This document shows positions 1-29,983 of a stretch of DNA of 32,296 nt, piece after piece. A program made the position numbers and the translations under genes. Source of the DNA: an uncultured Eubacteriales bacterium. Its GTDB lineage: Bacteria; Bacillota; Clostridia; Peptostreptococcales; Anaerovoracaceae. Positions within the stretch are counted from its first letter, which is position 1. Each line of letters starts with the position of its first letter. The stretch spans positions 1 to 32,296 of the forward strand of contig CADCHO010000038.1 in assembly GCA_902801255.1 (NCBI GenBank), read 5' to 3'. A model generated the notes under the pieces. That model worked only from the letters and a program-made list of their open reading frames with translations, did not search any database and was not told the origin of the DNA.

Positions 1-1644
1 TAGCATCTCGATTACCGTGGTGTCCGCTCCTCTAGGCGCGAAGAATTCCACTACATCGAGTCCTACGGCGCCGGCGCCGATAACAACGACCTTCTTGCCT
101 GTGCAGTCCTCAGGATAGTTGTCCAGATTGTCGATAACGCCGAGAACTGTCTGCACTTTGCCCTTGCCTACGTTTTCCTTGAGTCCAGGGATAGGGAGGA
201 TCAGAGGCAGTGAACCTGTGGAGTTAACGATGATGTCCGGGTTAAGTGTTCTGATGAACTCAGGAGTCGCCTCGGTGTTCAGGAACACGTGCAGGTTGTG
301 GAGCTTCTTGATCCTTCTCTCAAGGTAGTCAGGGAAGTCTCTCAGTCTGCGCTTGTCAGGGAACTTCGAGATCTCATATGCGAGTCCGCCAAGATGATCT
401 GCCTTTTCGATCAGGAATGCTGTGCAGCCAACCTCAGCAGCTGTGCATGCTGCTTCCATACCGGCTGTACCACCGCCGATAACTACTACGTTGCATGGCT
501 TGTTGACCTTGAGCTTCTTGTATTCATCTCCCTCAATGACTGCAGGGTTAACAGTGCATCTGATAGGTCTGTTGTTCTGGATACGGTTGCCTGCGCATCC
601 GATGTTGCAGCTGATGCACTTTCTGATGTCGCACTCTTCACCGAATTCAACTTTGTTTACCCAGTCAGGGTCAGCGATCAGTCCTCTGCCGATGCCGATG
701 AAGTCAGCGTCGCCTCTCTCGAGGATGTCGTTAGCTACCTTAGGGCTTCTGATGTTGCCCATGGTGACTACCGGCTTGCCGAATCTTTCCTTAACAGCCT
801 TTGCGAGATATGCTCTCCAGCCGTCAGGATAGCAGTTGCTGTCGATCTGATACTGCAGGGAAGGGTTGAGAGCAGCAGATACGTTGTATACGTCTACCTC
901 GTCGCCGAAGTACTGCAGATACTCAAGGCAGTCGTCGAGGTTGTTGCCGCCCTCGAGAAACTCGTCTGCACTGATTCTTGCGAGGATAGGAATGAATGGT
1001 CCTACCTGTTTTCTTACTTCGTCAATGACCATTCTGGCAAGACGTGCTCTGTTCTCAGCGCATCCGCCGAACTCGTCAGTTCTCTTGTTATAGATAGGCG
1101 AGAGGAACTGGCTGATGAGGTATGAATGTCCGCAGTGGACCTCGATTGCATCGAATCCAGCCTGAACTGCACGCTTTGCAGCTTCGCCGTATTTCTTTAC
1201 GATAGCTTCGATCTCATCTTTCTCAAGCGGACGAGGTGCTTCGCCGCCGAGCTTTGACGGAACTGTCGATGATGAAACTGTAGGAACTCCTGTACGTGCA
1301 GATGAAGCAGATGCTCCTGCGTGGTTGATCTGTACTGCAATGAGTCCGCCTTCACCGTGGACTGCTTCTGTCAGCTTGTAGAGCTTCGGCATGAACATGT
1401 CATGGTCGAGTCTGAGCTGGCTTGTTCCGTTGGAGCCGGTAGGGAAGTCTACGCATACGTTCTCTACGATGATGAGACCTGTGCCGCCTCTGGCTCTGAG
1501 CTTGTAGTAATTGATGTGGTCTTCGTTGATGCCGCCATCCGGATCAGCGTAGTTTGTGCCCATCGGGGTCATAACGACTCTGTTCTTGAAAACGGTTCTT
1601 CTTACTGTGATCGGCTCGAAAATCTTTGGGTAATCTTTCTTCAT
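1..1644 (-). CDS. NADH:flavin oxidoreductase of the old yellow enzyme / 2,4-dienoyl-CoA reductase type (3' end beyond window)
   Basis: The visible 548 residues show the three-domain plan of FadH/BaiCD-type ene-reductases. An FMN-binding TIM barrel occupies about 1-340, with the signature HCGHSYLISQFLSP at 170-183 (His170, His173, Tyr175). A 4Fe-4S cluster motif CxxCxxxC-x12-C lies at Cys343, 346, 350 and 363. An FAD-binding GGGTAGMEAA motif begins near 390, and a second dinucleotide fold (VIGAGAVGLDVVE) near the cut end. Family members are usually about 640-680 residues, so roughly 100 residues are missing beyond base 1. The start is set by GGAGGGATC placed 6 nt before the ATG. The family reduces activated C=C bonds with NAD(P)H. 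The substrate here is unknown; the adjacent shikimate/quinate genes suggest an enone such as 3-dehydroshikimate, which is inference. A TTGATA-N9-TATCAA palindrome lies upstream. Confidence 0.9.
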   Translation of the reverse strand, partial: MKKDYPKIFEPITVRRTVFKNRVVMTPMGTNYADPDGGINEDHINYYKLRARGGTGLIIVENVCVDFPTGSNGTSQLRLDHDMFMPKLYKLTEAVHGEGGLIAVQINHAGASASSARTGVPTVSSSTVPSKLGGEAPRPLEKDEIEAIVKKYGEAAKRAVQAGFDAIEVHCGHSYLISQFLSPIYNKRTDEFGGCAENRARLARMVIDEVRKQVGPFIPILARISADEFLEGGNNLDDCLEYLQYFGDEVDVYNVSAALNPSLQYQIDSNCYPDGWRAYLAKAVKERFGKPVVTMGNIRSPKVANDILERGDADFIGIGRGLIADPDWVNKVEFGEECDIRKCISCNIGCAGNRIQNNRPIRCTVNPAVIEGDEYKKLKVNKPCNVVVIGGGTAGMEAACTAAEVGCTAFLIEKADHLGGLAYEISKFPDKRRLRDFPDYLERRIKKLHNLHVFLNTEATPEFIRTLNPDIIVNSTGSLPLILPIPGLKENVGKGKVQTVLGVIDNLDNYPEDCTGKKVVVIGAGAVGLDVVEFFAPRGADTTVIEML

Positions 1645-1702
1645 GTTTTGATCCCTCCAAGTGTCATCATACTGTCTTGTGGTACTTATATGATAAATAA
1701 AT

Positions 1703-1736
1703 AACGAGCAAAAGGGAAATATCTTTCTTGCTCGTT
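1703..1736. terminator. Hairpin between lysR and the reductase gene, possible terminator
   Basis: A perfect 9-bp inverted repeat, AACGAGCAA/TTGCTCGTT (1703-1711 and 1728-1736), has an extra inner GAAA/TTTC pairing. On the - strand it is followed by a T-rich tract (TTATTTATTTATC); on the + strand it is followed by only a few T. It could end the lysR transcript before the reductase promoter. It lies between the candidate operator at 1737-1759 and the reductase start. Confidence 0.45.
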
Positions 1737-1759
1737 TTTGATAGCCTGAAGGTATCAAA
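1737..1759. promoter_or_regulatory. Candidate LysR operator upstream of the reductase gene
   Basis: A perfect palindrome TTTGATA-N9-TATCAAA. The same half-sites with the same 9-bp spacer recur at 2762-2784 in front of the shikimate operon. A possible -10 (TATAAG, - strand, 1690-1685) would put the centre of the site near -70. Extra half-site TTGATA at 1769-1774. Binding by the adjacent LysR protein is inferred. Confidence 0.65.
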
Positions 1760-1782
1760 TAAAGAATATTGATACTATAGTG

Positions 1783-2691
1783 TTAAATAATAGCTTTTAC
1801 CTCTTCCGGTTCCAGATCGGACCCGCTGATCATGAAATCTATGAAGCGTTTTGTTGCAGGCATAAGATAATGATTCTTCAGCCATACCGCGTTTACATAG
1901 TGGATAAGATCGACGTCCGACACGCTGTGTATCTTCAGATACTTGTCGTTCAGGATGTCGACCCTGGCTACAAGGGCTATTCCGAACTGTTCTCTTACCA
2001 GCGCCTGTATGGCGTTTTCATCCGAACACTCGCAGACTATATCCGGCTTTATTCCCAGATTTCTGTACAGCCTTTTTGTATAACCTCCAAGACCTGAGAA
2101 TCTGTCGTAGCCTATCACCGGGTAGTTGGCGAGCTCCTTTATCGACAGATCGCCTCTGTCCGCGAGAGGATGCTCGTTCGAAGTGATGATCACCATTTCC
2201 TGCTTAAGGATAGGGACGAATTCCAGCTCTTCCTCATTTTCCGAATACGCGCAGAACCCTACATCCAGCTTGCCGCTTTTTATATCCCGTATGATCGATG
2301 AGGTCCTGTTCTGATTGAAACCGAAAGTCACGTGCTCGTTCTCCGGCATGTCAAGGAAAGATCGCACCTTGTGAGGGATGTAGTAATTGGCCAGCGGGAA
2401 GACGTATCCGATGTCGATGCGGCCGCCCGTCGATGAAAGTTCCTTCATTTTATATATAGCGATGTCGCACTCGTCGAGAATGCGGTTGGTGTATTCAAGA
2501 AACAACCTGCCGCTTCCGGTAAGCGATATCCCTCTGCCCGCACGTTCAAAGAGCATCACGCCCAGTTCCTGCTCGAGCGAATCTATTGAGCGGGAAAGAG
2601 AGGGCTGCGAAATGTACAGTTCTTCTGCCGCGGCACGGAAGTTGAGAGCTCTGGCGACTGCCTGGAAATATCTGAGCTGGTTAAGAGTCAT
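1783..2691 (-). CDS. LysR-type transcriptional regulator, probable regulator of the shikimate/quinate module
   Basis: A 302-residue protein of usual LysR length. Residues 1-60 form the winged helix-turn-helix (MTLNQLRYFQAVARALNFRA, then AAAEELYISQPSLSRSI and LEQELGVMLFERAGRGISLT), and about 90-300 form the two-lobed periplasmic-binding-like effector domain. It lies between the reductase gene, read in the same direction, and the divergent dehydrogenase operon, the classic position for a LysR regulator controlling its neighbours. Two matching palindromes flank it, one on each target side. Listeria monocytogenes has a comparable LysR (QuiR) beside shikimate dehydrogenase and dehydroquinate dehydratase genes that responds to shikimate, as I recall; orthology is not shown here. 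The effector is probably shikimate, quinate or a dehydro-derivative, by inference from context. Confidence 0.9.
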   Translation of the reverse strand: MTLNQLRYFQAVARALNFRAAAEELYISQPSLSRSIDSLEQELGVMLFERAGRGISLTGSGRLFLEYTNRILDECDIAIYKMKELSSTGGRIDIGYVFPLANYYIPHKVRSFLDMPENEHVTFGFNQNRTSSIIRDIKSGKLDVGFCAYSENEEELEFVPILKQEMVIITSNEHPLADRGDLSIKELANYPVIGYDRFSGLGGYTKRLYRNLGIKPDIVCECSDENAIQALVREQFGIALVARVDILNDKYLKIHSVSDVDLIHYVNAVWLKNHYLMPATKRFIDFMISGSDLEPEEVKAII

Positions 2692-2761
2692 TTTGCACCT
2701 CTTTTCGCGGTATTTCAGCGCTTTTCCTGTCTGTAAACCATATTATCACAAAGCATATACG

Positions 2762-2814
2762 ATTGATACATTTAGGCTATCAATAATTGCAATATATGAT
2801 ATTGGACTGTATCA
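2762..2814. promoter_or_regulatory. Candidate LysR recognition and activation sites in front of the shikimate operon
   Basis: Site A is the perfect palindrome ATTGATA-N9-TATCAAT (2762-2784); it contains a T-N11-A core (2767/2779). Site B is a weaker TGATA-N8-TATCA (2797-2814), about three helical turns away and overlapping the predicted -35 element at 2802-2807. Site A is centred close to -65 of the predicted start. This is the recognition-site plus activation-site layout known for LysR regulators. The protein that binds is inferred. Confidence 0.7.
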
Positions 2815-2831
2815 GAGAAGATAGTTAAAAT
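2802..2831 (+). promoter_or_regulatory. Predicted sigma-A promoter of the shikimate/quinate operon
   Basis: TTGGAC (2802-2807), an 18-bp spacer and TAAAAT (2826-2831). The -35 match is imperfect, as expected for an activator-dependent promoter, and is overlapped by the weaker LysR-type site. The leader to the first gene is about 120 nt. Confidence 0.5.
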
Positions 2832-2957
2832 ATAAACAAGAAATAGTTATTGTTTTAACAATGTTGTCTTCTGGCTTGTGGTGAATCAGAGACATTGTTC
2901 CGGGAGAGGCTGAATAAGCCTGAAAGATCAAAGGATCAAAATAAAGGAGAAATAGAA

Positions 2958-3836
2958 ATGGCAGAAAGAATCACAGGACATACCGAACTCATCGGACTTA
3001 TGGCTTATCCTATCCGTCACTCCAGCTCGCCTGCTATGCAGAACGAAGCATTCGCAGAGGTGGGAGCTGATTATGCTTACCTCGCGTTCGAAGTTGGCGC
3101 TGATGAGATCGAGGACGCTGTAAAGGCCATCCGCACTCTCAAGATGAGAGGTTCAAACGTATCCATGCCTAACAAGACTCTGGTAGGACAGTATCTTGAC
3201 GAACTCGACCCTGCAGCAGAACTCTGCGGAGCGGTAAACACGATCGTCAACGATAACGGTCACCTGAAGGGATACATCACAGACGGTATCGGCTTCATGG
3301 CAGCTATCAAGGATAACGACATCGATCCTATAGGCAAGAAGATGACTATCGTAGGAGCCGGCGGCGCTGCTACAGCTATCGAGATCCAGGCTGCTCTTGA
3401 CGGAGTTGCTGAGATCTCCATCTTCAACATCAAGGACAAGTTCTATGAAGTAGGAGAAGACACAGTAAAGAAGATCAACGAGAACACAAACTGCAAGGCA
3501 AAGATGTTTGACCTCGCTGACACTGAAGCTCTCCGCAGAGAGATGGCAGACAGCTACCTCTTCGTAAATGCTACAGGCGCAGGCATGAAGCCGCTCGAGG
3601 ACGTTTCCGTAGTTCCTGACAAGAGCTTCTTCAGACCTGAACTCATCGTTGTAGACGTTCCTTATGGATGCCTTCTGACAAAGATGAGAAAGATGGCCAA
3701 GGAAGTCGGCTGCAAGACCATGAACGGCCTTGGCATGATGCTCTTCCAGGGAGCTGCCGGATTTGAGCTCTGGACAGGCAAGCCAATGCCGATCGAGCAC
3801 ATGAAGGAAGTCCTCGGCATCAGCTACGACGACTAA
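2958..3836 (+). CDS. Shikimate/quinate dehydrogenase, YdiB-like
   Basis: A 292-residue AroE-superfamily enzyme that interconverts shikimate with 3-dehydroshikimate, or quinate with 3-dehydroquinate. The N-terminal motif ELIGLMAYPIRHSSSPAMQN and LKMRGSNVSMPNK (catalytic Lys73) resemble E. coli YdiB more than biosynthetic AroE. Asn94, Asp109 and Gln264 of the substrate site are present, and the Rossmann loop GAGGAA is at 133-138. Asp160 and Phe162 (IKDKF) match the YdiB residues linked to NAD rather than NADP use. One oddity is Ile107 where the family usually has Asn in GYNTDG. The start at 2958 is chosen for AAAGGAGA 8 nt upstream; an upstream in-frame start at 2895 has no such site. It is first in an operon with an MFS carrier and AroD. 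No other aromatic-biosynthesis gene is nearby, favouring catabolism. Confidence 0.9.
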   Translation: MAERITGHTELIGLMAYPIRHSSSPAMQNEAFAEVGADYAYLAFEVGADEIEDAVKAIRTLKMRGSNVSMPNKTLVGQYLDELDPAAELCGAVNTIVNDNGHLKGYITDGIGFMAAIKDNDIDPIGKKMTIVGAGGAATAIEIQAALDGVAEISIFNIKDKFYEVGEDTVKKINENTNCKAKMFDLADTEALRREMADSYLFVNATGAGMKPLEDVSVVPDKSFFRPELIVVDVPYGCLLTKMRKMAKEVGCKTMNGLGMMLFQGAAGFELWTGKPMPIEHMKEVLGISYDD

Positions 3837-3889
3837 TTATGATATTAAAACAGTCAACGATGACATATGGAAAATGAGAGGAAACAAAA

Positions 3890-5101
3890 ATGACTAACAA
3901 AAAGTATTTACCAAGTGTAATAGTTCTTTATCTGAACTATTTCCTTCACGGTATCGGCTGCTCAGTCCTCGGACAGGCAGTAATCAAGGACGCACTTGCT
4001 GCAAGCTGGAATGTTGAGGCTATGGCTATCACAGCTATCGCAGCTGCACTCGGACTCGGAAGACTTATCGCACTTCCGTTCGCAGGCCCTCTTTCAGATA
4101 AGCTCGGCCGCAGAATATCGACAGCTATCGGCGGATTCTCATATGCAGTTTATCTGATCGGACTCGCTATGGCATTCAACGCAGGCGGCGGCGCAGGATA
4201 CAGGATCGCTTACATCTGCGCTATCATCGGCGGAATCGCTAACTCCTTCCTCGACACAGGAATCTATCCTGCTGTTGCCGAGATCATCAACAAGGCTCCT
4301 GGCGTTGCAACAATGGGTATCAAGTTCGCTATCTCCGGTTCGCAGTTCCTGCTGCCATTCTTCCTTGGAATCACAGTAGGCCAGACAGCTACCGGAATGG
4401 TAAGCTACAACACTCTGTTCTACGCAGTAGGTATCTGCTACCTCGTGCTCATGGCCCTCATCCTCTTCTTCCCTCTGCCGGATACAGACAAGAAGACTGA
4501 AGAGAAAAAGGAAGGCCTTCTGCAGAGCATCAAGCACGCTAACTTCTCTGCTGGTTCGATCGCTATGATCCTCATCGGATTCACATGCACAGGTACATTC
4601 CAGCTCTGGCTCAACTGCGCACAGAACTTTGCAAAGGACGTTGCCGGCTGGGCTGAGCCGCAGGCTATGCAGTCGTTCTACGCTATCGGAACAATGATCG
4701 GTCTCGTAGTTACAGCTCTGCTGACAAGCAAGGTCAAAGACGTAAGATTCGTAATGATCTATCCTGCAATCTGCGCACTCATGATGGTTGCAGTACTTAT
4801 GGCTCCTTCACAGGGAATGCTCAAGATCGGTGCTTTCGTACTCGGTTGGTTCGGAGCAGGCGGACTTCTGCAGATCGCAACATCCGTTTGCAACATGCTC
4901 TTCCCTAAGATCAAGGGAACAGTTACAGCTCTCGTAATGATCGCTTCGTCTCTGTGCAACTACACACTCCTTACAGCTGCTGCATCGATGACTCCGTCCG
5001 GAGTAATGATCATGAACATCGCGCTGACAGCAGTAGGAACCCTGCTCGGAGTATTCGTAAACATGAATTACAACAAGATGCTCGAGGCTGCAGAGAAATA
5101 G
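3890..5101 (+). CDS. MFS transporter, probable shikimate/quinate or related uptake carrier
   Basis: A 403-residue, very hydrophobic protein with the 12-helix pattern of the major facilitator superfamily. The MFS loop 2-3 signature appears as GPLSDKLGRRIS at about residues 64-75, after two N-terminal helices. A charged cytoplasmic loop (TDKKTEEKKEG, about 198-208) separates the two six-helix halves. A clear AGAGGAAA ribosome binding site precedes the start. It sits between the dehydrogenase and the dehydroquinate dehydratase and is presumably co-transcribed, so its cargo is probably shikimate, quinate or a product of their breakdown. The sequence alone does not say whether it imports substrate or exports product. 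Codon choice is strongly biased, like the ribosomal protein and chaperone genes in the window. Confidence 0.85.
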   Translation: MTNKKYLPSVIVLYLNYFLHGIGCSVLGQAVIKDALAASWNVEAMAITAIAAALGLGRLIALPFAGPLSDKLGRRISTAIGGFSYAVYLIGLAMAFNAGGGAGYRIAYICAIIGGIANSFLDTGIYPAVAEIINKAPGVATMGIKFAISGSQFLLPFFLGITVGQTATGMVSYNTLFYAVGICYLVLMALILFFPLPDTDKKTEEKKEGLLQSIKHANFSAGSIAMILIGFTCTGTFQLWLNCAQNFAKDVAGWAEPQAMQSFYAIGTMIGLVVTALLTSKVKDVRFVMIYPAICALMMVAVLMAPSQGMLKIGAFVLGWFGAGGLLQIATSVCNMLFPKIKGTVTALVMIASSLCNYTLLTAAASMTPSGVMIMNIALTAVGTLLGVFVNMNYNKMLEAAEK

Positions 5102-5135
5102 TACTCCCGCGTGCTTAGCAGAAAGGAAGGAAACA

Positions 5136-5897
5136 ATGAACACTGTTAAGGTTAGAAATATTGTTATCGGCGAAGGCATGCCGAAGATCTGCGTGCCTAT
5201 CGTAGGAGTAACAAAGGAAGCCATTCTCGAAGAAGCAAAAGCAATCACAAAGCTTCCTGCAGACGTAGTTGAGTGGAGAATCGACTGGTTCGAGAACGTA
5301 TTCGACTTCGTTGCTCTCGAGGATGTTATGAAGGGTCTCCGTGAGGTTCTCGGAGACATGCCTATCCTGATGACATTCCGTACTTCAAAGGAAGGCGGAG
5401 AGAAGGCCATCGAGGATGAAGTCTATGCTGACATCAACATCAGGGCTGCTCAGACAGGTTATGTTGACATGGTAGACGTTGAAGTGTTCACAGGCGATGA
5501 GATCGTAAAGAAGATCATCGACGGTGCACATGCTGCAGGCGTTAAGGTCGTAGCATCCAACCATGATTTCTTCAAGACTCCTGATAAGGACGACATCGTA
5601 GGCCGTCTCCGCAAGATGCAGGATCTCGGCGCAGACATCCCTAAGATCGCTGTTATGCCGCAGAACAAGAAAGACGTTCTTACTCTGCTTGCTGCAACAG
5701 AAGAAATGGCAAACGAGTATGCTGACCGTCCTATCATCACTATGTCGATGGCAGGAACAGGCGTCATCAGCCGTCTTGCAGGCGAAGTGTTCGGTTCTGC
5801 ACTGACTTTCGGCGCAGCTGCAAAGGCTTCTGCACCGGGACAGATGGGAGTACAGGATCTCAAGCAGGTACTTACTCTCCTGCACGGAGCACTTTAG
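5136..5897 (+). CDS. aroD: 3-dehydroquinate dehydratase, type I
   Basis: A 253-residue class I enzyme that converts 3-dehydroquinate to 3-dehydroshikimate through a Schiff base. Catalytic residues fall at the numbering of the E. coli and Salmonella enzymes: Glu46 and Arg48 (EWR), Arg82, His143 (SNHDF), Schiff-base Lys170 (PKIAVMP), Arg213 (ISRLAG), and Ser232 and Gln236 (SAPGQM). The length is typical. The start has GGAAGGAAA upstream. It is the third gene of the operon with the YdiB-like dehydrogenase. Together they would bring quinate and shikimate to the common intermediate 3-dehydroshikimate. No dehydroshikimate dehydratase (route to protocatechuate) is seen in this window. Confidence 0.95.
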   Translation: MNTVKVRNIVIGEGMPKICVPIVGVTKEAILEEAKAITKLPADVVEWRIDWFENVFDFVALEDVMKGLREVLGDMPILMTFRTSKEGGEKAIEDEVYADINIRAAQTGYVDMVDVEVFTGDEIVKKIIDGAHAAGVKVVASNHDFFKTPDKDDIVGRLRKMQDLGADIPKIAVMPQNKKDVLTLLAATEEMANEYADRPIITMSMAGTGVISRLAGEVFGSALTFGAAAKASAPGQMGVQDLKQVLTLLHGAL

Positions 5898-5910
5898 TAA
5901 ACTGTTAATT

Positions 5911-5939
5911 CATGCCCCGCCCATAAAGGGTGGGGCATG
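5911..5939 (+). other. Strong GC-rich hairpin between aroD and the TRAP genes
   Basis: A 12-bp stem with one G-U pair (5911-5922 with 5928-5939) and the 5-nt loop ATAAA. It is not followed by a T tract, so it is a poor intrinsic terminator. An in-frame ATG at 5937 lies inside its 3' arm. It could act as an mRNA processing or stability element separating aroD from dctQ. Confidence 0.6.
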
Positions 5940-5960
5940 GTCAAAAGAAAGGGTAAAGCC

Positions 5961-6536
5961 ATGACAAAAGCTATAAAATGGCTTGATCATAATCTGGAGG
6001 AATTCCTGCTGACCCTGCTGTTGCTTGCGATGGCAGTAATCATGGGTGTGCAGGTTTTCTCAAGATTTGCGCTTAAAGCTTCGCTGTCGTGGACTGAAGA
6101 GCTCACAAGATACCTGTTCATATGGGCAGGCTTTCTGAGCGTCAGCTACTGCAGCAAGAGGTGCATCTCGATCAAGATAGAACAGTTCGTGGCAAAATTC
6201 TCAAGGCGCACGAAAGCGATCATCAAAGTGGTAAATCATACGATAGAGCTGGCTTTTTTCTTTTATATGATTCCGTTTGCTTTTTCGTATATGATGTCAG
6301 CTGTTGAGAGCGGACAGGTGAGTCCGGCTCTTGGCATACCGATGTACTACATCCAGGCTGCGCCTTTTGTATCATTCATACTGGTAGCTTTCAGGATAAT
6401 CCAGAGATGGATCATAGAGTTAAAGGTTTCACTTGGAATGGAAGTCTATGACCCGGCACATCCTGAACGCAATACTCCTGAATCATTCATTGAAGCAGGC
6501 CAGGCCGCATCGCCGGCAGAGGCCGGAAAGGAGTAG
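5961..6536 (+). CDS. TRAP transporter small membrane subunit (DctQ-like)
   Basis: A 191-residue protein with four predicted membrane helices (near residues 12-35, 48-65, 88-110 and 130-150), the DctQ/YiaM plan. LSWTEELTRYLFIWAGFLS is the characteristic DctQ motif at about residues 39-57. The tail is hydrophilic and Ala/Glu/Pro rich. The start at 5961 is preferred because AGAAAGGG lies about 7 nt upstream; the alternative ATG at 5937 lies in a stable hairpin. It is followed after 2 nt by the large subunit. TRAP systems import organic acids, driven by an ion gradient. Placement after aroD suggests a cyclic or simple carboxylate as substrate, which is inference. Confidence 0.85.
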   Translation: MTKAIKWLDHNLEEFLLTLLLLAMAVIMGVQVFSRFALKASLSWTEELTRYLFIWAGFLSVSYCSKRCISIKIEQFVAKFSRRTKAIIKVVNHTIELAFFFYMIPFAFSYMMSAVESGQVSPALGIPMYYIQAAPFVSFILVAFRIIQRWIIELKVSLGMEVYDPAHPERNTPESFIEAGQAASPAEAGKE

Positions 6537-6538
6537 TC

Positions 6539-7828
6539 ATGCCGGTAGGATTATTGTTCATACTGTTCGTGGTATTCCTTATAATAGCAATACCAGTAGG
6601 CATCACGCTGGGAATAACAGCCGTTTTGCCTCACATATTCGATCCGTCGTTCACGGTGGGAGCCAAGTATCTCATCAGAGCGATGTTCGGCGGACTCGAC
6701 AGCTTCCCGCTTCTGGCGGTACCGATGTTCGTTCTTTCGGGCATCATCATGGCCAAGGGAGGCATTTCACGCAAAATATTCGACATTTTCGCTTACTTCT
6801 TCGGCAGATTCACTGCCGGAATGCCTTGCGCAGTTATAGTTACATGCCTGTTCTACGGCGCGATCTCCGGATCGGCTCCGGCGACCGTAGCTGCCGTAGG
6901 CAGCATGACCATCCCGATCCTGATCGGGCTGGGCTACGACAAGACATTCTCGACTTCTGTCGTAGCGGTCGCCGGCGGACTCGGCGTAATTATACCGCCA
7001 AGCATACCGTTCATCATGTATGGCATGGCATCCGGTGCATCTGTAAGCGACCTGTTCCTTGCGGGCATAATTCCGGGTCTCGTGATAGCGTTACTTCTGA
7101 TGGGGTATTCCGTATTCTACTGCAAGAAGAACGGAGAAGATAAAGTCAGGATAGACGCTGAGATAGGCAAGCTCCATGAGAAAGGCTTCCTGAATGTTTT
7201 CAAGGAAAGCTTCTGGGCTATTCTGAGCCCTGTGATCGTGCTCGGATGCATTTATTCGGGCATCACATCACCGACAGAGGCAGCTGTAATTTCGGTATAC
7301 TATGCACTGATAGTCAGCCTTTTCATCTACAAGGAGATAAAGCTCAAAGATCTTTGGGGTATTCTTGTTGAAGCCATCAAGACCTTCACACCGATACTGT
7401 TTATTCTGGCAGCATCGACAGCTTTCTCCAGGGTACTGACTCTCATGCAGGTTCCTCAGACTGTCAGCTCGTTCATACTCGGAAACTTCTCAAGCAAGGT
7501 CATCATACTGCTTGTTATAAACGTATTCCTGCTCATCGTTGGTATGGTCATGGATACGACACCGGCGATCCTGATCCTCACGCCGATCCTGCTGCCGATA
7601 GCACAGGGTATCGGAATGGATCCTATCCAGTTCGGTGTGATAATGGTAGTAAACCTGGCTATAGGATTCGTAACTCCGCCTATCGGAGTCAACCTCTTTG
7701 TAGCCAGTGCACTGACGGACGTTCCGGTCATGGAGATAGCAAGAAAGGCAATGCCGATGATCGGTCTCTTCCTGATAGCGCTGCTCCTGTTCACTTTCGT
7801 GCCTGCGTTCTCGCTGGCTCTTCTGTAG
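6539..7828 (+). CDS. TRAP transporter large permease subunit (DctM-like)
   Basis: A 429-residue, almost entirely hydrophobic protein with about 12 helices, matching the DctM family in length and motifs. These include FPLLAVPMFVLSGIIMAKGG near 58-77, GAISGSAPATVAAVGSMTIP near 103-122, GVIIPPSIPFIMYG near 148-161, and a second re-entrant motif FVTPPIGVNLFVAS near 379-392. It forms the ion-coupled translocation channel together with DctQ. The ribosome binding site AAAGGAG lies at the end of dctQ, implying coupled translation. Confidence 0.92.
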   Translation: MPVGLLFILFVVFLIIAIPVGITLGITAVLPHIFDPSFTVGAKYLIRAMFGGLDSFPLLAVPMFVLSGIIMAKGGISRKIFDIFAYFFGRFTAGMPCAVIVTCLFYGAISGSAPATVAAVGSMTIPILIGLGYDKTFSTSVVAVAGGLGVIIPPSIPFIMYGMASGASVSDLFLAGIIPGLVIALLLMGYSVFYCKKNGEDKVRIDAEIGKLHEKGFLNVFKESFWAILSPVIVLGCIYSGITSPTEAAVISVYYALIVSLFIYKEIKLKDLWGILVEAIKTFTPILFILAASTAFSRVLTLMQVPQTVSSFILGNFSSKVIILLVINVFLLIVGMVMDTTPAILILTPILLPIAQGIGMDPIQFGVIMVVNLAIGFVTPPIGVNLFVASALTDVPVMEIARKAMPMIGLFLIALLLFTFVPAFSLALL

Positions 7829-7838
7829 GGGGTGTGAA

Positions 7839-8870
7839 ATGAAAAGAAATAATCAAAAACACCTTCGTCTGACGGCCATATTCATCTGCATACTGATGAT
7901 GGGAATGATGATGACTGCCTGCGGTAAGAATAATGGAGAGCAGAGATATGCATATCCTCTTGCAACAGCAAGCCCGGAGGACACGGTAACTCAGATATAC
8001 GCTGAAAAATATGCGGAAGAAGTGGACAGACTGTCCAAAGGAAGCATAAAGATCCAGGTATATGCCAACTCTACACTTGGAGGCGACCGTGAGCTGCTTG
8101 AGTCCTGCAAGGACGGAGACATCCCGTTTGTAGTGCAGAATACCGCTCCTCAGGTCACATTCATGCCTGATCTTGCAATATTCGACGTGCCTTGCGCATT
8201 CGAAAATCTTGATGAATGCAGAGAGGTTCTCGATGATCCGGAATTCAGTACTCTTATAAAGAGCGTGTATGAAAAGGGCGGATATCAGCTGCTCGGAGTC
8301 GCAGATCAGGGTTTCCGCATAATGAGCACTAACAAGCCTGTAAAGGGAATAGGAGACTTCAAGGGGCAGAAGATCCGTACCATGGAGAACCCGTTCCACC
8401 TGGCGTTCTGGAAATCAATAGGAGCCAATCCGACTCCTATGAGCTTCGCTGAGGTATATATCGGACTTCAGCAGCACACTATAGACGCTCAGGAGAACCC
8501 TTATGAGGTCATCGTATCGAACAGGCTCTATGAGCAGCAGGACTACGTGGTTGAGACCAATCACCTCCCGCATCTGATCACGCTGATCATGAATGATGAG
8601 TTCTTCAAAGGTATGCCTGAAGAGAATCAGCGCATTCTGAAGGAGGCTGCAGCCACAGCAACCGAATATGCACGACAGGCATCTGATGACAGAATAGCTG
8701 ACAGAGTCAAGACCATCGAAGACAGCGGTACTCAGATACTGAAGATCGATGAGGAAACCTATAAGGCCATCGTTGATGAAAGTTCCGGGGTGCGTGACAG
8801 CATTAAGGAAAAAGTAGATTCCGAAGTCTACAACACATTTATCGAATGTATCGATAAATACCAGAAGTAA
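7839..8870 (+). CDS. TRAP transporter solute-binding lipoprotein (DctP-like)
   Basis: A 343-residue extracytoplasmic binding protein. It has a positively charged N-terminus, a hydrophobic stretch and the lipobox MTAC with lipidated Cys28, as expected for membrane anchoring in a Gram-positive cell. Family motifs are present: the helix after TQIYAEKYAEEV, GGDRELLESCKDGDIPFV, GQKIRTMENP (the conserved Arg that pairs with substrate carboxylate), QENPYEVI and HLPHLITLIMNDEFF. It begins 10 nt after the permease with GGGGGTG upstream. The gene order Q-M-P differs from the common P-Q-M order. A strong terminator follows. The likely ligand is a carboxylate, perhaps shikimate, quinate or an aromatic/alicyclic acid; the position in the module is the only evidence. 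Confidence 0.9.
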   Translation: MKRNNQKHLRLTAIFICILMMGMMMTACGKNNGEQRYAYPLATASPEDTVTQIYAEKYAEEVDRLSKGSIKIQVYANSTLGGDRELLESCKDGDIPFVVQNTAPQVTFMPDLAIFDVPCAFENLDECREVLDDPEFSTLIKSVYEKGGYQLLGVADQGFRIMSTNKPVKGIGDFKGQKIRTMENPFHLAFWKSIGANPTPMSFAEVYIGLQQHTIDAQENPYEVIVSNRLYEQQDYVVETNHLPHLITLIMNDEFFKGMPEENQRILKEAAATATEYARQASDDRIADRVKTIEDSGTQILKIDEETYKAIVDESSGVRDSIKEKVDSEVYNTFIECIDKYQK

Positions 8871-8887
8871 AATTCATAATAATTATT

Positions 8888-8926
8888 GACGCCGGAGCAT
8901 CAGACTTCGGCGTCGTTTTCTTTTTT
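8888..8926 (+). terminator. Rho-independent terminator of the TRAP operon
   Basis: A 10-bp stem with one G-U pair (GACGCCGGAG, loop CATCAGA, CTTCGGCGTC; 8888-8914) is followed by GTTTTCTTTTTT. Confidence 0.9.
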
Positions 8927-8946
8927 GAACCTTCAGCATGGATATG

Positions 8947-8955
8947 TGATACAAT
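8947..8955 (+). promoter_or_regulatory. Extended -10 promoter of the second lysR gene
   Basis: TGATACAAT at 8947-8955 fits an extended -10 element (TG-N-TACAAT). A weak -35 candidate, TTGAAC, lies 19 nt upstream at 8925-8930, inside the T tract of the preceding terminator. Confidence 0.45.
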
Positions 8956-9028
8956 AAACTTTATTAAGGAAGACTTAAAGAGGACGCGAACGTTGCTCGC
9001 ACATGTCTTAAATAAAACGGGGGCAAAA

Positions 9029-9898
9029 ATGGAAACTGCAAGACTCAGAGCATATGTTGAGACCGCTGAAAAGGGCAGTGTCAAAGCTGCTGCGGACTCC
9101 CTCGGATACACACCGTCAGCCATAAGCCAGCTGATCACGGCGCTTGAAAAAGAACTCAGAATAACACTGTTTACGCGTTCACAGAAAGGCATGAAACTCA
9201 CGGCTGAGGGCAGAGAGATGCTGCCGCTTGTGCGGTCTTATCTGACACATGAAGAGGAGATCTACACATTTGCTGCCGAGCTCAGGGGTGTAACAAGGGG
9301 AACGCTGGTGATCGCAACATACCCGAGCATAGCTACTACATGGCTCCCTGAAATAGTAAGAAGCTTTAAGAACGACTTTCCTGGTATACAGATAAGCATC
9401 ATGGAAAGTATTAAGACTGATATAATACGGCATTTTGAGCAGAATGAGGCGGATCTGGCATTTCTGGCTTACTCTGAGCCGATGCCATATGAGTGGATAC
9501 CGCTGTCCTCCAGCAATATCATCGCTGCTGTTCCTGAAGATCACAGGCTGGCCGGTGCAAAGAGCTTCCCGATAAAAGAATGCGAGAAAGAAGATTTCAT
9601 CATGGGGTCGTGGGGAAAGGAGATGGAGATCCTGGAGATCCTTGATAAGAATGACGTGCATCCGGAGATAAAGTATACGACGTACGATACTCCTGCTACA
9701 CTTGCGATGGTCCGCATGGGGCTTGGCGTAAGTTTCGTCAATGAACTGTCCGCACAGTTCTGGAACGAGCATCTGGTGAAAATGCCGCTCGATCCTCCTC
9801 AGACAATAACATTTGGTGCGGCAATTCCTTCAAAGGATCATATGACAGGAGCGGCAAAGAAATTTCTTTCCTACACTCTGAACTATTTCGGAAAATAA
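9029..9898 (+). CDS. LysR-type transcriptional regulator (second)
   Basis: A 289-residue LysR protein. The N-terminal HTH reads METARLRAYVETAEKG, then AADSLGYTPSAISQLITALE and LFTRSQKGMKLTAEG; the effector domain starts near residue 90 (GTLVIATYPSIATTWLP). The ATG at 9029 is chosen because it gives the canonical LysR N-terminus; the open frame extends back to a TTG at 8993 that would add 12 atypical residues. Its target is not evident: it follows the TRAP terminator and has its own promoter. No TTGATA-N9-TATCAA site lies in front of it, so it probably does not belong to the same circuit as the first LysR. The next gene begins 14 nt downstream. Confidence 0.9.
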   Translation: METARLRAYVETAEKGSVKAAADSLGYTPSAISQLITALEKELRITLFTRSQKGMKLTAEGREMLPLVRSYLTHEEEIYTFAAELRGVTRGTLVIATYPSIATTWLPEIVRSFKNDFPGIQISIMESIKTDIIRHFEQNEADLAFLAYSEPMPYEWIPLSSSNIIAAVPEDHRLAGAKSFPIKECEKEDFIMGSWGKEMEILEILDKNDVHPEIKYTTYDTPATLAMVRMGLGVSFVNELSAQFWNEHLVKMPLDPPQTITFGAAIPSKDHMTGAAKKFLSYTLNYFGK

Positions 9899-26931: not shown

Positions 26932-27007
26932 GGTCCATTAGCTCAGTTGGGAGAGCGACAGGGTGACAACCTGTAGGTCATTGGTTCAAGTCCAATATGG
27001 GCCACCA
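26932..27007 (+). tRNA. tRNA-Val (anticodon GAC)
   Basis: A complete 76-nt cloverleaf. Acceptor stem GGTCCAT/ATGGGCC (one G-U), D arm GCTCAGTTGGGAGAGC, anticodon arm ACAGG-GTGACAA-CCTGT with anticodon GAC reading GUC/GUU valine codons, variable AGGTC, T arm ATTGG-TTCAAGT-CCAAT. The discriminator A and CCA are encoded in the DNA (27004-27007). A TACAAT box at 26911-26916 may be its -10. No duplicated 3' end suggesting an integrated element was seen. Confidence 0.96.
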
Positions 27008-29248: not shown

Positions 29249-29983
29249 ATGAACGATTATTATAAGAGAGAATACAGCTGGATAATGGACAGAGAAATGG
29301 AGCACGCGATCTTCGGCGACAGCGGCAGACTCTGTGTGGCTTTCGGACCTCAGAACGGACATACATACGATTTCCGCAATTTCGGAATGATCGATACCAT
29401 AGCTCCGTGGATCGAGGCAGGAAAGCTGAGAGTGCTCTGCGTAGACAGCATAGATGAAGAAACATGGTCTGCAGAAGGCCGTAATGAGCGCGAGAGACTC
29501 GAACTGCAGGAAAGATGGTTCCGCTATGTAACAGATGAGCTCGTACCGCAGTATCTCGGAGACGAGCGCGCAATCACTACAGGCTGCAGCATGGGTGCTA
29601 CCCACGCCATGAACTTCTTCTGCCGCCGTCCTGATCTTTTCGGAGGTGTCATTGCACTGAGCGGTCTGTTTGACACAAACTATTTCTTCCACGGATACAA
29701 AGATGATCTGACATATGCGAATTCTCCTATTGAATTCATCCCTAACATGCCGGAGCACCATCCATGGATGGATCTGTACAGACAGAGCAGCATCATCTTC
29801 TGCTGCGGACAGGGAGCATGGGAAGATGAGATGAGAGTAGATCTGCAGAAACTGCACGAGGCCTTTGAAGGAAAGGGAATTCCGCACTGGGCTGATTACT
29901 GGGGTTACGACGTCAATCATGACTGGCCTTGGTGGAGAAAACAGCTTCCGTACTTCATGAGCAACATCCTCGGTCAACCTTAA
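29249..29983 (+). CDS. Alpha/beta-hydrolase, esterase family
   Basis: A 244-residue serine hydrolase of the putative-esterase (esterase D-like) group. The nucleophile elbow GCSMGA gives Ser114, and the late His224 (VNHDWPWW) completes the triad with an acidic residue, perhaps near Glu192-Asp193. Trp and Tyr are unusually frequent near the C-terminus (HWADYWGYDVNHDWPWWRKQ). There is no signal peptide, so it is cytosolic. AAAGGGG lies 8 nt before the ATG. It ends the channel-ligase-esterase gene set and is followed at once by a terminator. It might hydrolyse the product or a side product of the neighbouring ligase; there is no direct evidence. Confidence 0.87.
   Translation: MNDYYKREYSWIMDREMEHAIFGDSGRLCVAFGPQNGHTYDFRNFGMIDTIAPWIEAGKLRVLCVDSIDEETWSAEGRNERERLELQERWFRYVTDELVPQYLGDERAITTGCSMGATHAMNFFCRRPDLFGGVIALSGLFDTNYFFHGYKDDLTYANSPIEFIPNMPEHHPWMDLYRQSSIIFCCGQGAWEDEMRVDLQKLHEAFEGKGIPHWADYWGYDVNHDWPWWRKQLPYFMSNILGQP

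What the first reader, a model, noticed from the sequence alone, without database searches (positions are those of the whole stretch)
1..8870. Possible reductive shikimate/quinate catabolic module with an ene-reductase and two transporters
A YdiB-like dehydrogenase and type I dehydroquinate dehydratase would bring quinate and shikimate to 3-dehydroshikimate, which is an enone. The divergent old-yellow-enzyme-type Fe-S flavoprotein belongs to a family that reduces activated C=C bonds. No dehydroshikimate dehydratase (route to protocatechuate) and no biosynthetic aro genes are present here. A new route in which 3-dehydroshikimate is reduced as an electron sink, instead of being aromatised, would explain the set. 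A similar LysR-reductase-aroE-aroD group exists in Listeria, as I recall, with the reductase unassigned. Gut conversion of quinate to reduced cyclohexane carboxylates is known chemically.
Basis: inference. Interest (0 to 1): 0.75.

Follow-up and report, generated by a model that had tools for sequence, protein, structure and literature searches.

The report
Gut bacterial quinate/shikimate reduction gene cluster
A gut bacterium that has lost the pathway for making aromatic amino acids still carries a widespread gene cluster that probably imports the plant acids quinate and shikimate and reduces them as a place to dump electrons, using a reductase for which I found no assigned substrate.

Summary
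The gene set is real. A YdiB-type shikimate/quinate dehydrogenase, a YdiM/YdiN-like MFS carrier, type I dehydroquinate dehydratase and TRAP genes form one operon. A LysR regulator and an Fe-S old-yellow-enzyme flavoprotein (OYE, cut off by the contig start) run the other way. In 8 of 8 genomes where an OYE search found an orthologue (57-100%), aroE and aroD lie beside it; in 0 of 11 with OYEs of 37-43%. The window's genome and a 97%-complete sister lack DHQ synthase, shikimate kinase, EPSP synthase and chorismate synthase, and any PF01261 protein, the superfamily of QuiC-type dehydroshikimate dehydratases. So neither aromatic biosynthesis nor a QuiC-type protocatechuate route explains the set there. 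A shared LysR-type box lies before both transcription units in this lineage. I judge reduction of 3-dehydroshikimate or a near cyclic enone most likely (0.6), unproven. 'New route' is only partly right: lactic acid bacteria are already reported to reduce quinate to dihydroshikimate as hydrogen acceptor. The candidate enzyme, its residue signature and its spread are what is new.

The parts
1..1644 (-). Fe-S flavoenzyme of the old-yellow-enzyme/FadH/BaiCD class (FMN barrel + FAD/NAD domain), 3' end missing at the contig start; candidate 3-dehydroshikimate (cyclic enone) reductase
   Evidence: Pfam Oxidored_FMN 245 bits + Pyr_redox_2; CX2CX3CX12C at residues 343-363 and H170-x-x-H173-x-Y175; no NCBIfam equivalog cut-off met among those listed, also with the full-length orthologue
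1739..1757 (.). LysR-type operator-like box TGATA-N9-TATCA upstream of the OYE
1783..2691 (-). LysR-family regulator (LysR1), upstream of the OYE and divergent from aroE
   Evidence: Pfam HTH_1 + LysR_substrate; 37% identical to the Listeria regulator beside the orthologous group
2764..2782 (.). second box TGATA-N9-TATCA, between LysR1 and aroE
2797..2814 (.). third, N8-spaced box
2958..3836 (+). YdiB-type quinate/shikimate dehydrogenase (AroE family)
   Evidence: NF001313 shikimate dehydrogenase 485 bits, cut-off 431; 62% to Listeria, 60% to Klebsiella, 49% to E. coli YdiB; best PDB match 3tnl/3toz
3890..5101 (+). MFS carrier of the YdiM/YdiN kind
   Evidence: Pfam MFS_1; 30% to E. coli YdiM, 27% to YdiN
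5136..5897 (+). type I 3-dehydroquinate dehydratase (AroD)
   Evidence: TIGR01093 259 bits, cut-off 139; motifs around the catalytic Glu/Arg, His, Lys, Arg and Gln present (residue roles recalled)
5937..6536 (+). TRAP transporter small permease DctQ
   Evidence: Pfam DctQ
6539..7828 (+). TRAP transporter large permease DctM
   Evidence: TIGR00786 410 bits, cut-off 268
7839..8870 (+). TRAP solute-binding protein DctP
   Evidence: TIGR00787 218 bits, cut-off 175
8887..8915 (+). terminator-like hairpin after DctP
   Evidence: 11-pair stem then T-run (consensus match only: 8 such sites found, 7.8 expected)
8993..9898 (+). second LysR regulator next to the operon; matched in only part of the related loci, so probably not a core part

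Best explanation
A quinate/shikimate uptake and reduction module. The TRAP transporter and/or the MFS carrier bring in quinate and shikimate (one may instead export the reduced product). The YdiB-type dehydrogenase oxidises quinate to 3-dehydroquinate, and shikimate to 3-dehydroshikimate; AroD dehydrates dehydroquinate to 3-dehydroshikimate. The Fe-S OYE passes electrons from NAD(P)H through FAD and [4Fe-4S] to FMN and reduces the C=C of this enone to 3-oxo-4,5-dihydroxycyclohexane carboxylate. The dehydrogenase can then reduce the ketone to dihydroshikimate, so that each quinate takes up one net NADH. LysR1 switches both transcription units through a shared operator. Shown: genes, conserved linkage, shared box sequence, loss of biosynthesis, no PF01261 protein, clade-specific residues. 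Inferred: substrate, direction, product, cofactor, transport roles, LysR1 binding.
For: Linkage: 8 of 8 genomes with an OYE orthologue (57-100%) found by OYE search have aroE and aroD within 10 kb; 0 of 11 with OYEs of 37-43%. In genome contigs 26 of 28 loci have aroE beside the OYE, the other two being short contigs or fragments. Of 8 plasmid-collection records with a clade OYE (54% or more), 5 (3 Listeria, 2 Klebsiella) have aroE next to it. No chorismate pathway in G000/G135. No PF01261 protein in either. Box: 3 hits in the window against 0.27 expected, all in the two intergenic regions around LysR1. Residues: N107, R117, K131, N260, Q266, D268 in 21 of 21 clade members; N260 aligns with FadH H252, Y175 with FadH Y166 (roles recalled). 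Swap: in L. salivarius a FAD_binding_2/FMN_bind flavoprotein of the flavocytochrome c kind, another likely C=C reductase, sits beside aroE-aroD and no OYE is annotated in the stretch. Quinic acid reduction to dihydroshikimic acid as hydrogen acceptor is reported in lactic acid bacteria.
Against: No biochemical or expression data. Three Paenibacillus plasmids carry a clade OYE without a YdiB-type aroE on the plasmid; in the one opened no aroD lies within 8 kb either. YdiB-type aroE also occurs without the OYE: G286, E. coli ydiB, and 47 of 52 plasmid records with such an aroE are not among those with a clade OYE. Another OYE subfamily (35%) is linked to aroE beside a weakly QuiC-like TIM barrel (G442, G526), so an aroE-linked OYE need not mean the reductive route. 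In Listeria, aroD of this group (lmo0491) appears in one Tn-seq table together with the biosynthetic shikimate genes (passage), so there AroD also seems to serve biosynthesis. In several relatives shikimate kinase/chorismate mutase genes lie close to the module. The box is not enriched genome-wide (G000: 8 sites, 8 in the reversed control; G082, without the OYE, 6 against 1) and 16 of 30 loci lack it, one Mogibacterium-like locus included. Clade-specific residues are spread over the whole protein (46 positions); no distance to the active site was measured. The window's OYE is incomplete.
Confidence: 0.6

Rival explanations
1. The OYE acts as an enoate reductase directly on shikimate (or on a later dehydrated intermediate), and AroE/AroD only convert quinate to shikimate. 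Same module, different step.
For: The same enzyme class includes enoate reductases (recalled); the module would look identical. Conserved R117 and K131 could hold a carboxylate in either substrate.
Against: An enone is a much better OYE substrate than an enoate (general chemistry); the aroE product is the enone.
Confidence: 0.12
2. The OYE reduces or detoxifies another plant compound that comes with quinate, such as caffeate freed from chlorogenate, and is only co-regulated with quinate use.
For: Quinate is released from chlorogenate together with caffeate (passages in PMC13101492 and PMC12248444); Fe-S flavoenzymes reduce many alkenes (PMC11574389). Esterase-like genes exist at some distance: a PF00756 protein at window 29249-29983, about 20 kb away, and a GDSL hydrolase three genes past aroD in Listeria.
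Against: The Listeria operon itself holds only OYE, aroE and aroD; none of the window genes from 1 to 9898 is an esterase; at residues 117, 260, 266 and 290 the clade has R, N, Q and K where most of 15 outsiders have hydrophobic residues or Tyr (at 107, 131 and 268 the outsiders are largely polar or small too).
Confidence: 0.13
3. Salvage: imported quinate/shikimate feeds chorismate and aromatic amino acid synthesis.
For: Shikimate kinase-chorismate mutase fusions lie near the module in Faecalitalea, Absicoccus, Robinsoniella and a Lachnospiraceae MAG, and EPSP synthase, chorismate synthase and prephenate dehydratase genes near it in G218. lmo0491 groups with shikimate pathway genes in a Listeria Tn-seq table.
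Against: The window genome and G135 have no shikimate kinase, EPSP synthase or chorismate synthase; salvage gives no work to a C=C reductase.
Confidence: 0.05
4. Oxidative/aromatising route: 3-dehydroshikimate goes to protocatechuate or, by desaturation, to gallate, with the OYE running backwards or serving another role.
For: BaiCD, the best-scoring NCBIfam model, also has an oxidative step; a weakly QuiC-like TIM barrel sits beside aroE-linked OYEs of another subfamily; Listeria qui operons were described as making protocatechuate (recalled, paper not held).
Against: No PF01261 protein in G000 or G135; no gallate or protocatechuate gene among the neighbours that I annotated.
Confidence: 0.1

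Closest known systems
Listeria group lmo0488-lmo0491 (LysR, NADH:flavin oxidoreductase, shikimate dehydrogenase, aroD)
   Same: Orthologous OYE (60%), aroE (62%), aroD (58%) and LysR (37%) in one place
   Different: No transporter inside the group; Listeria keeps chorismate pathway genes (lmo1749, lmo1927, lmo1928 in a passage of PMC11970672), and lmo0491 groups with them there. The matching of lmo numbers to the annotated record is recalled, supported by the names in PMC10269891 and PMC11970672
E. coli ydiN-ydiB-aroD
   Same: MFS, YdiB dehydrogenase and AroD side by side
   Different: No OYE or TRAP gene in the stretch; ydiF/ydiO follow; no DNA like the Klebsiella OYE in the 5,426 E. coli genomes by blastn
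Ligilactobacillus salivarius pMP118 shikimate group
   Same: LysR, AroE (59%), AroD (45%), MFS carriers and a candidate C=C reductase
   Different: The reductase is an unrelated FAD_binding_2/FMN_bind flavoprotein; an SDR and a TIM-barrel protein are added
Reduction of quinate/shikimate to dihydroshikimate by lactic acid bacteria
   Same: The proposed chemistry and electron-sink role (PMC13204703 passage)
   Different: Other bacteria; the passage names no enzyme
Fe-S flavoenzymes BaiCD, BaiH, BilR, daidzein reductase, FadH
   Same: Domain build and Fe-S motif
   Different: No listed NCBIfam cut-off is met: BaiCD 456 of 825 bits and BilR long form 359 of 750 with the full-length orthologue; BaiH, daidzein reductase and FadH were not scored by a model of their own

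Membership tests
YdiB-type quinate/shikimate dehydrogenase | AroE domains and a curated shikimate dehydrogenase score | tested here: met
   PF08501 and PF18317; NF001313 485 bits against cut-off 431
YdiB-type quinate/shikimate dehydrogenase | Curated cut-off of the quinate/shikimate dehydrogenase equivalog NF009390 (PRK12749, YdiB as I recall) | tested here: not met
   338.7 against 349 bits, so a close relative rather than YdiB itself
YdiB-type quinate/shikimate dehydrogenase | Catalytic Lys/Asp pair | tested here: met
   NVSMPNK and TDGIG (roles recalled)
YdiB-type quinate/shikimate dehydrogenase | Activity with quinate and shikimate | not testable with these tools
   needs assay
Type I 3-dehydroquinate dehydratase | Curated score and Schiff-base lysine with its neighbours | tested here: met
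   TIGR01093 259 against 139 bits; motifs (roles recalled)
Fe-S flavoenzymes of the OYE class | OYE barrel, FAD/NAD(P) domain and CX2CX3CX11-13C | tested here: met
   motif as described in PMC11574389
BaiCD / BilR / mycofactocin OYE / NamA | Curated cut-offs | tested here: not met
   Full-length orthologue from L012 and the Listeria protein: all below
Reductive quinate/shikimate metabolism (as in lactic acid bacteria) | Formation of dihydroshikimate with quinate as electron acceptor | not testable with these tools
   needs culture and mass spectrometry
Quinate/shikimate to protocatechuate catabolism | Dehydroshikimate dehydratase of the QuiC/AsbF TIM-barrel type | tested here: not met
   No PF01261 match in G000 (78.5% complete) or G135 (97%), matches in the other 8 genomes of the call; that the known dehydratases belong to this superfamily is recalled
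Aromatic amino acid biosynthesis (chorismate pathway) | DHQ synthase, shikimate kinase, EPSP synthase, chorismate synthase | tested here: not met
   for G000 and G135

The most novel reading that the evidence does not exclude
This OYE clade is a dedicated 3-dehydroshikimate reductase, the first enzyme assignment for anaerobic quinate/shikimate reduction in gut and rumen Clostridia, Erysipelotrichia, Listeria and Klebsiella. It would be the committed step of a fermentative electron sink on plant quinate that starts the path to reduced cyclohexane carboxylates, evolved at least twice with unrelated flavoenzymes (OYE here, a flavocytochrome c-type enzyme in lactobacilli).
Probability: 0.5. Interest if true: 0.75.

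Novelty: new variant of a known kind. Interest (0 to 1): 0.6.

Why it matters
Quinate is abundant in plant food and forage, as chlorogenate (recalled). Its reduction by lactic acid bacteria is known as chemistry, but in the listings and passages I saw no reductase gene is tied to it. If right, this clade gives a gene marker with a residue signature (N107, R117, K131, N260, Q266, D268), an easily tested assay, and a function for one subfamily among the many Fe-S flavoenzymes of unknown function. It also warns that aroE and aroD alone do not show aromatic biosynthesis: here they stay in genomes that have lost the rest of that pathway.

Tried and rejected
Biosynthesis and salvage were rejected for the window's species by missing DHQ synthase, shikimate kinase, EPSP synthase and chorismate synthase. 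A dehydroshikimate dehydratase just beyond base 1 was looked for in the G135 locus (OYE 98% identical) and not found among the genes annotated there: pdxA-, rpiB-, phosphofructokinase- and GntR-type. A genome-wide search with the box gave no enrichment. The box was not found in 16 of 30 loci, Listeria, Klebsiella, Robinsoniella, Absicoccus and Faecalitalea among them. The TRAP binding protein's PDB matches (sialate-binding and other DctP proteins) do not name its ligand. Paper searches returned no paper; searches were judged from their listings, from which I opened only PMC11574389, PMC13101492 and PMC12248444; one search listed 13 papers, of which I looked at passages in six. The phylum OYE search missed the 56% orthologue in G442, found later through aroE, so its tallies are lower bounds. 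I ran no structure prediction, because no coordinates come back to measure the pocket.
Full report
What is there. The window is the whole of contig C38 (32,296 bases) of an assembly of 2.24 Mb, 78.5% complete. The closest relative with the module, G135 (97% complete, same genus), matches the record Mogibacterium sp. RGIG2376 from goat ileum: the contig length 274,294 agrees. On the + strand aroE (2958-3836), an MFS carrier, aroD and DctQMP follow with gaps of 2-53 bases, closed by a terminator-like hairpin at 8887-8915 (the scan finds about as many such sites in shuffles). On the - strand LysR1 (1783-2691) precedes the OYE (1644 to the contig start). The OYE has the OYE barrel, the FAD/NAD domain, CX2CX3CX12C and H-x-x-H-x-Y; it is 548 aa long here and 664 aa in L012. 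A second LysR (8993-9898) follows but is matched in only part of the related loci.

Is the grouping real? OYE searches of 148 genomes of the family and 398 of the phylum gave 8 genomes with an orthologue at 57-100% identity (window included): G000, G135, G077, G124, G060, G216, G509, G218. All 8 have aroE and aroD within 10 kb; 7 of 8 have the TRAP genes (not G218) and 8 of 8 an MFS match (28-29% only in G509 and G218). The other 11 genomes of these two lists, with OYEs of 37-43% identity and the same flanks (two cut by contig ends), have neither (0 of 11). In genome contigs 26 of 28 loci have aroE beside the OYE and 25 of 28 aroD; L025 and L039 are a short contig and a fragment. In the plasmid collection 8 listed records have an OYE at 54% or more: 3 Listeria and 2 Klebsiella have aroE next to it, 3 Paenibacillus do not. 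Opened in detail: Listeria LysR|OYE-aroE-aroD, Klebsiella OYE-aroE-MFS-aroD with a LysR, Paenibacillus OYE without aroE or aroD in the stretch. Blautia hansenii has a decayed version: aroE in two pieces, no MFS or TRAP match.

The reverse question. A YdiB-type aroE search of 398 phylum genomes (E at most 1e-75) hit 7: five have a clade OYE nearby (G000, G216, G218, G442, G509), G526 has an OYE of another subfamily, G286 has none. In the plasmid collection 52 records have such an aroE and only 5 of them have the clade OYE; many of the rest are one species, L. salivarius (28). So the dehydrogenase also occurs without this reductase.

The tree. Of 36 OYEs that I chose, the 21 of the clade form one side of a fully supported branch (100/100), which holds every aroE-linked row but two (midpoint root). 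Those two (G442a, G526) belong to another subfamily also linked to aroE, next to a TIM barrel that matches QuiC weakly (37.7 and 40.8 bits against a cut-off of 1200). They were found by the aroE search, so their linkage is not an independent count.

What it is not. G000 and G135 each have one AroE by PF08501 (this one), and G000 one type I dehydroquinase (this one; G135 was not searched for it, its module copy is in L076). Neither has chorismate synthase, type II dehydroquinase, DHQ synthase or shikimate kinase, and both give only MurA-level scores to the EPSP synthase model (66 and 41 bits against a cut-off of 287). A same-genus genome in which no OYE orthologue was found, G082, has DHQ synthase, shikimate kinase, chorismate synthase, AroE-family hits and an EPSP-synthase-like hit of 271 bits, itself under the cut-off. 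The other module-bearing genomes tested keep chorismate synthase where looked for (G060, G124, G077), though G124 has no DHQ synthase match. So in the window's lineage AroE and AroD cannot serve aromatic biosynthesis; elsewhere they might do both. In Listeria a Tn-seq table in PMC11970672 (passage) lists lmo0491 with the shikimate pathway genes, which suggests that AroD there does serve biosynthesis. PF01261, which I recall as the superfamily of the known dehydroshikimate dehydratases, has no match in G000 or G135 but matches in the other 8 genomes of that call. The G000 negatives alone would be weak because a fifth of that genome is missing; G135 carries the argument.

Regulation. The pattern TGATA-N(6-10)-TATCA occurs 3 times in 32,296 bases (0.27 expected; 1 of 100 shuffles reached 3), all in the intergenic regions on either side of LysR1: 1739, 2764 and 2797. 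It is a T-N11-A type box (recalled as typical for LysR regulators). Over 30 loci the exact N9 form occurs 22 times in or within 20 bases of 12.5 kb of intergenic DNA that I marked in the modules, and once in 549 kb elsewhere. 19 of the 22 come from 11 closely related Mogibacterium-like loci, so they are not independent; 14 of 30 loci have it and 16 do not. Against this, G000 holds 8 exact sites genome-wide and 8 of the reversed control, G135 5 and 4, and G082 6 and 1. The simplest reading is that LysR1 controls the OYE and the aroE operon together in this lineage.

The reductase. 46 positions are shared by at least 19 of 21 clade members and rare among 15 outsiders, over the whole protein. Among them N107, S112, R117, K131, G172, N260, Q266, D268, D274, K290 and N297 are the same in 21 of 21, from Mogibacterium to Klebsiella and the unlinked Paenibacillus copy. 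R117 is L, I, F, S or T outside, N260 mostly Y, Q266 mostly hydrophobic, K290 V or I; N107 is H or Q, K131 mostly small or polar, D268 mostly E. By alignment N107 matches FadH L102, N260 matches FadH H252 and Y175 matches FadH Y166; that Y166 and H252 are FadH's catalytic residues, and that the position two after the FMN-binding Gln steers substrates in OYE1, is recalled. That R117, K131, Q266 and D268 face the substrate is a guess. New Arg/Lys and Asn/Gln at such places would suit a small hydroxylated carboxylate. No structure was computed.

A natural swap. In L. salivarius a group with LysR, AroE (59%) and AroD (45%) has, next to aroE, a 571-aa FMN_bind/FAD_binding_2 flavoprotein of the flavocytochrome c kind, and no OYE is annotated in the stretch. 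Among that protein's weaker matches, far under their cut-offs, are dehydrogenases of oxocyclohexane carboxylates. Two unrelated flavoenzyme families that can reduce C=C bonds in the same place argue for such a reduction as the shared step. This group also holds a TIM-barrel protein and an SDR, so more steps are possible there.

Prior knowledge. The library searched holds open-licence papers only. PMC13204703 (passages) states that in lactic acid bacteria quinic acid may be turned into shikimic and then dihydroshikimic acid and can serve as hydrogen acceptor, citing Filannino 2015 (not read). PMC7427622 (passage) also names dihydroshikimic acid as a product from chlorogenic acid. PMC10269891 (passages) says that the reactions of lmo2471 and lmo0489 remain to be elucidated (2023). 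[quoted passage not shown] From recall only: Whiting and Coggins on quinate reduction by lactobacilli, and Prezioso et al. 2018 on QuiR and protocatechuate formation in Listeria (the DOI I tried is not held). No enzyme assignment was seen in the listings of searches; that is no proof that none is in print, and the closed literature may hold one.

Energetics (inference). Quinate to dehydroquinate yields one NADH; reduction of dehydroshikimate and then of the ketone uses two; so quinate, and likewise shikimate, can absorb one net NADH if the ketone is reduced too, and none if it is not. That would suit a fermenting anaerobe. The direction of the MFS and TRAP transporters is unknown.

Verdict. 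The chemistry is not new; the enzyme assignment, its signature and its spread would be.

Noticed in passing
G000 and G135 genomes: The window's lineage has lost the chorismate pathway while a same-genus genome without a found OYE orthologue (G082) keeps most of it; it should need aromatic amino acids from outside.
   Followed up: partly
L086 6021-18859 (G442): Two different OYE-aroE groups side by side: one with a weakly QuiC-like TIM barrel, two aroE genes, an OYE of another subfamily and MFS carriers; the other of the window's type. It may let both fates of dehydroshikimate be compared in one organism.
   Followed up: partly
L093 3495-9644 (Ligilactobacillus salivarius pMP118): Shikimate group on a megaplasmid with a flavocytochrome c-type flavoprotein instead of the OYE; 28 Ligilactobacillus plasmid records carry the aroE.
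   Followed up: partly
L027 5232-10836 (Blautia hansenii): The module is decaying: aroE lies in two separate reading frames and no MFS or TRAP gene matches.
   Followed up: no
L028 13666-14469, L031 10037-10807, L033 2114-2923, L030 428-1210: Chorismate mutase-shikimate kinase fusion genes lie near the module in Erysipelotrichia and Lachnospiraceae relatives, with a second aroE in three of these four loci (L028, L031, L033).
   Followed up: partly
L012 12103-19783: Next to the OYE in the sister genome lies another group: pdxA-like gene, rpiB-like isomerase, two phosphofructokinase-family genes, GntR, ribulose-phosphate epimerase, a carrier and a TRAP binding protein.
   Followed up: no
window 29249-29983: A putative esterase (PF00756, 37.5 bits) about 20 kb from the module; whether it splits quinate esters is unknown.
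   Followed up: no
window 11229-32296: The rest of the window is ordinary housekeeping by look of the translations (murI, trigger factor, clpP, clpX, lon, a GTPase, rnhB, hrcA-grpE-dnaK) with one tRNA-Val at 26932-27007.
   Followed up: no
L095 5992-11546 (Lactococcus garvieae plasmid): A distant OYE flavoprotein (36%) lies one gene from optrA; no aroE is annotated in the stretch and it served only as an outgroup row.
   Followed up: no
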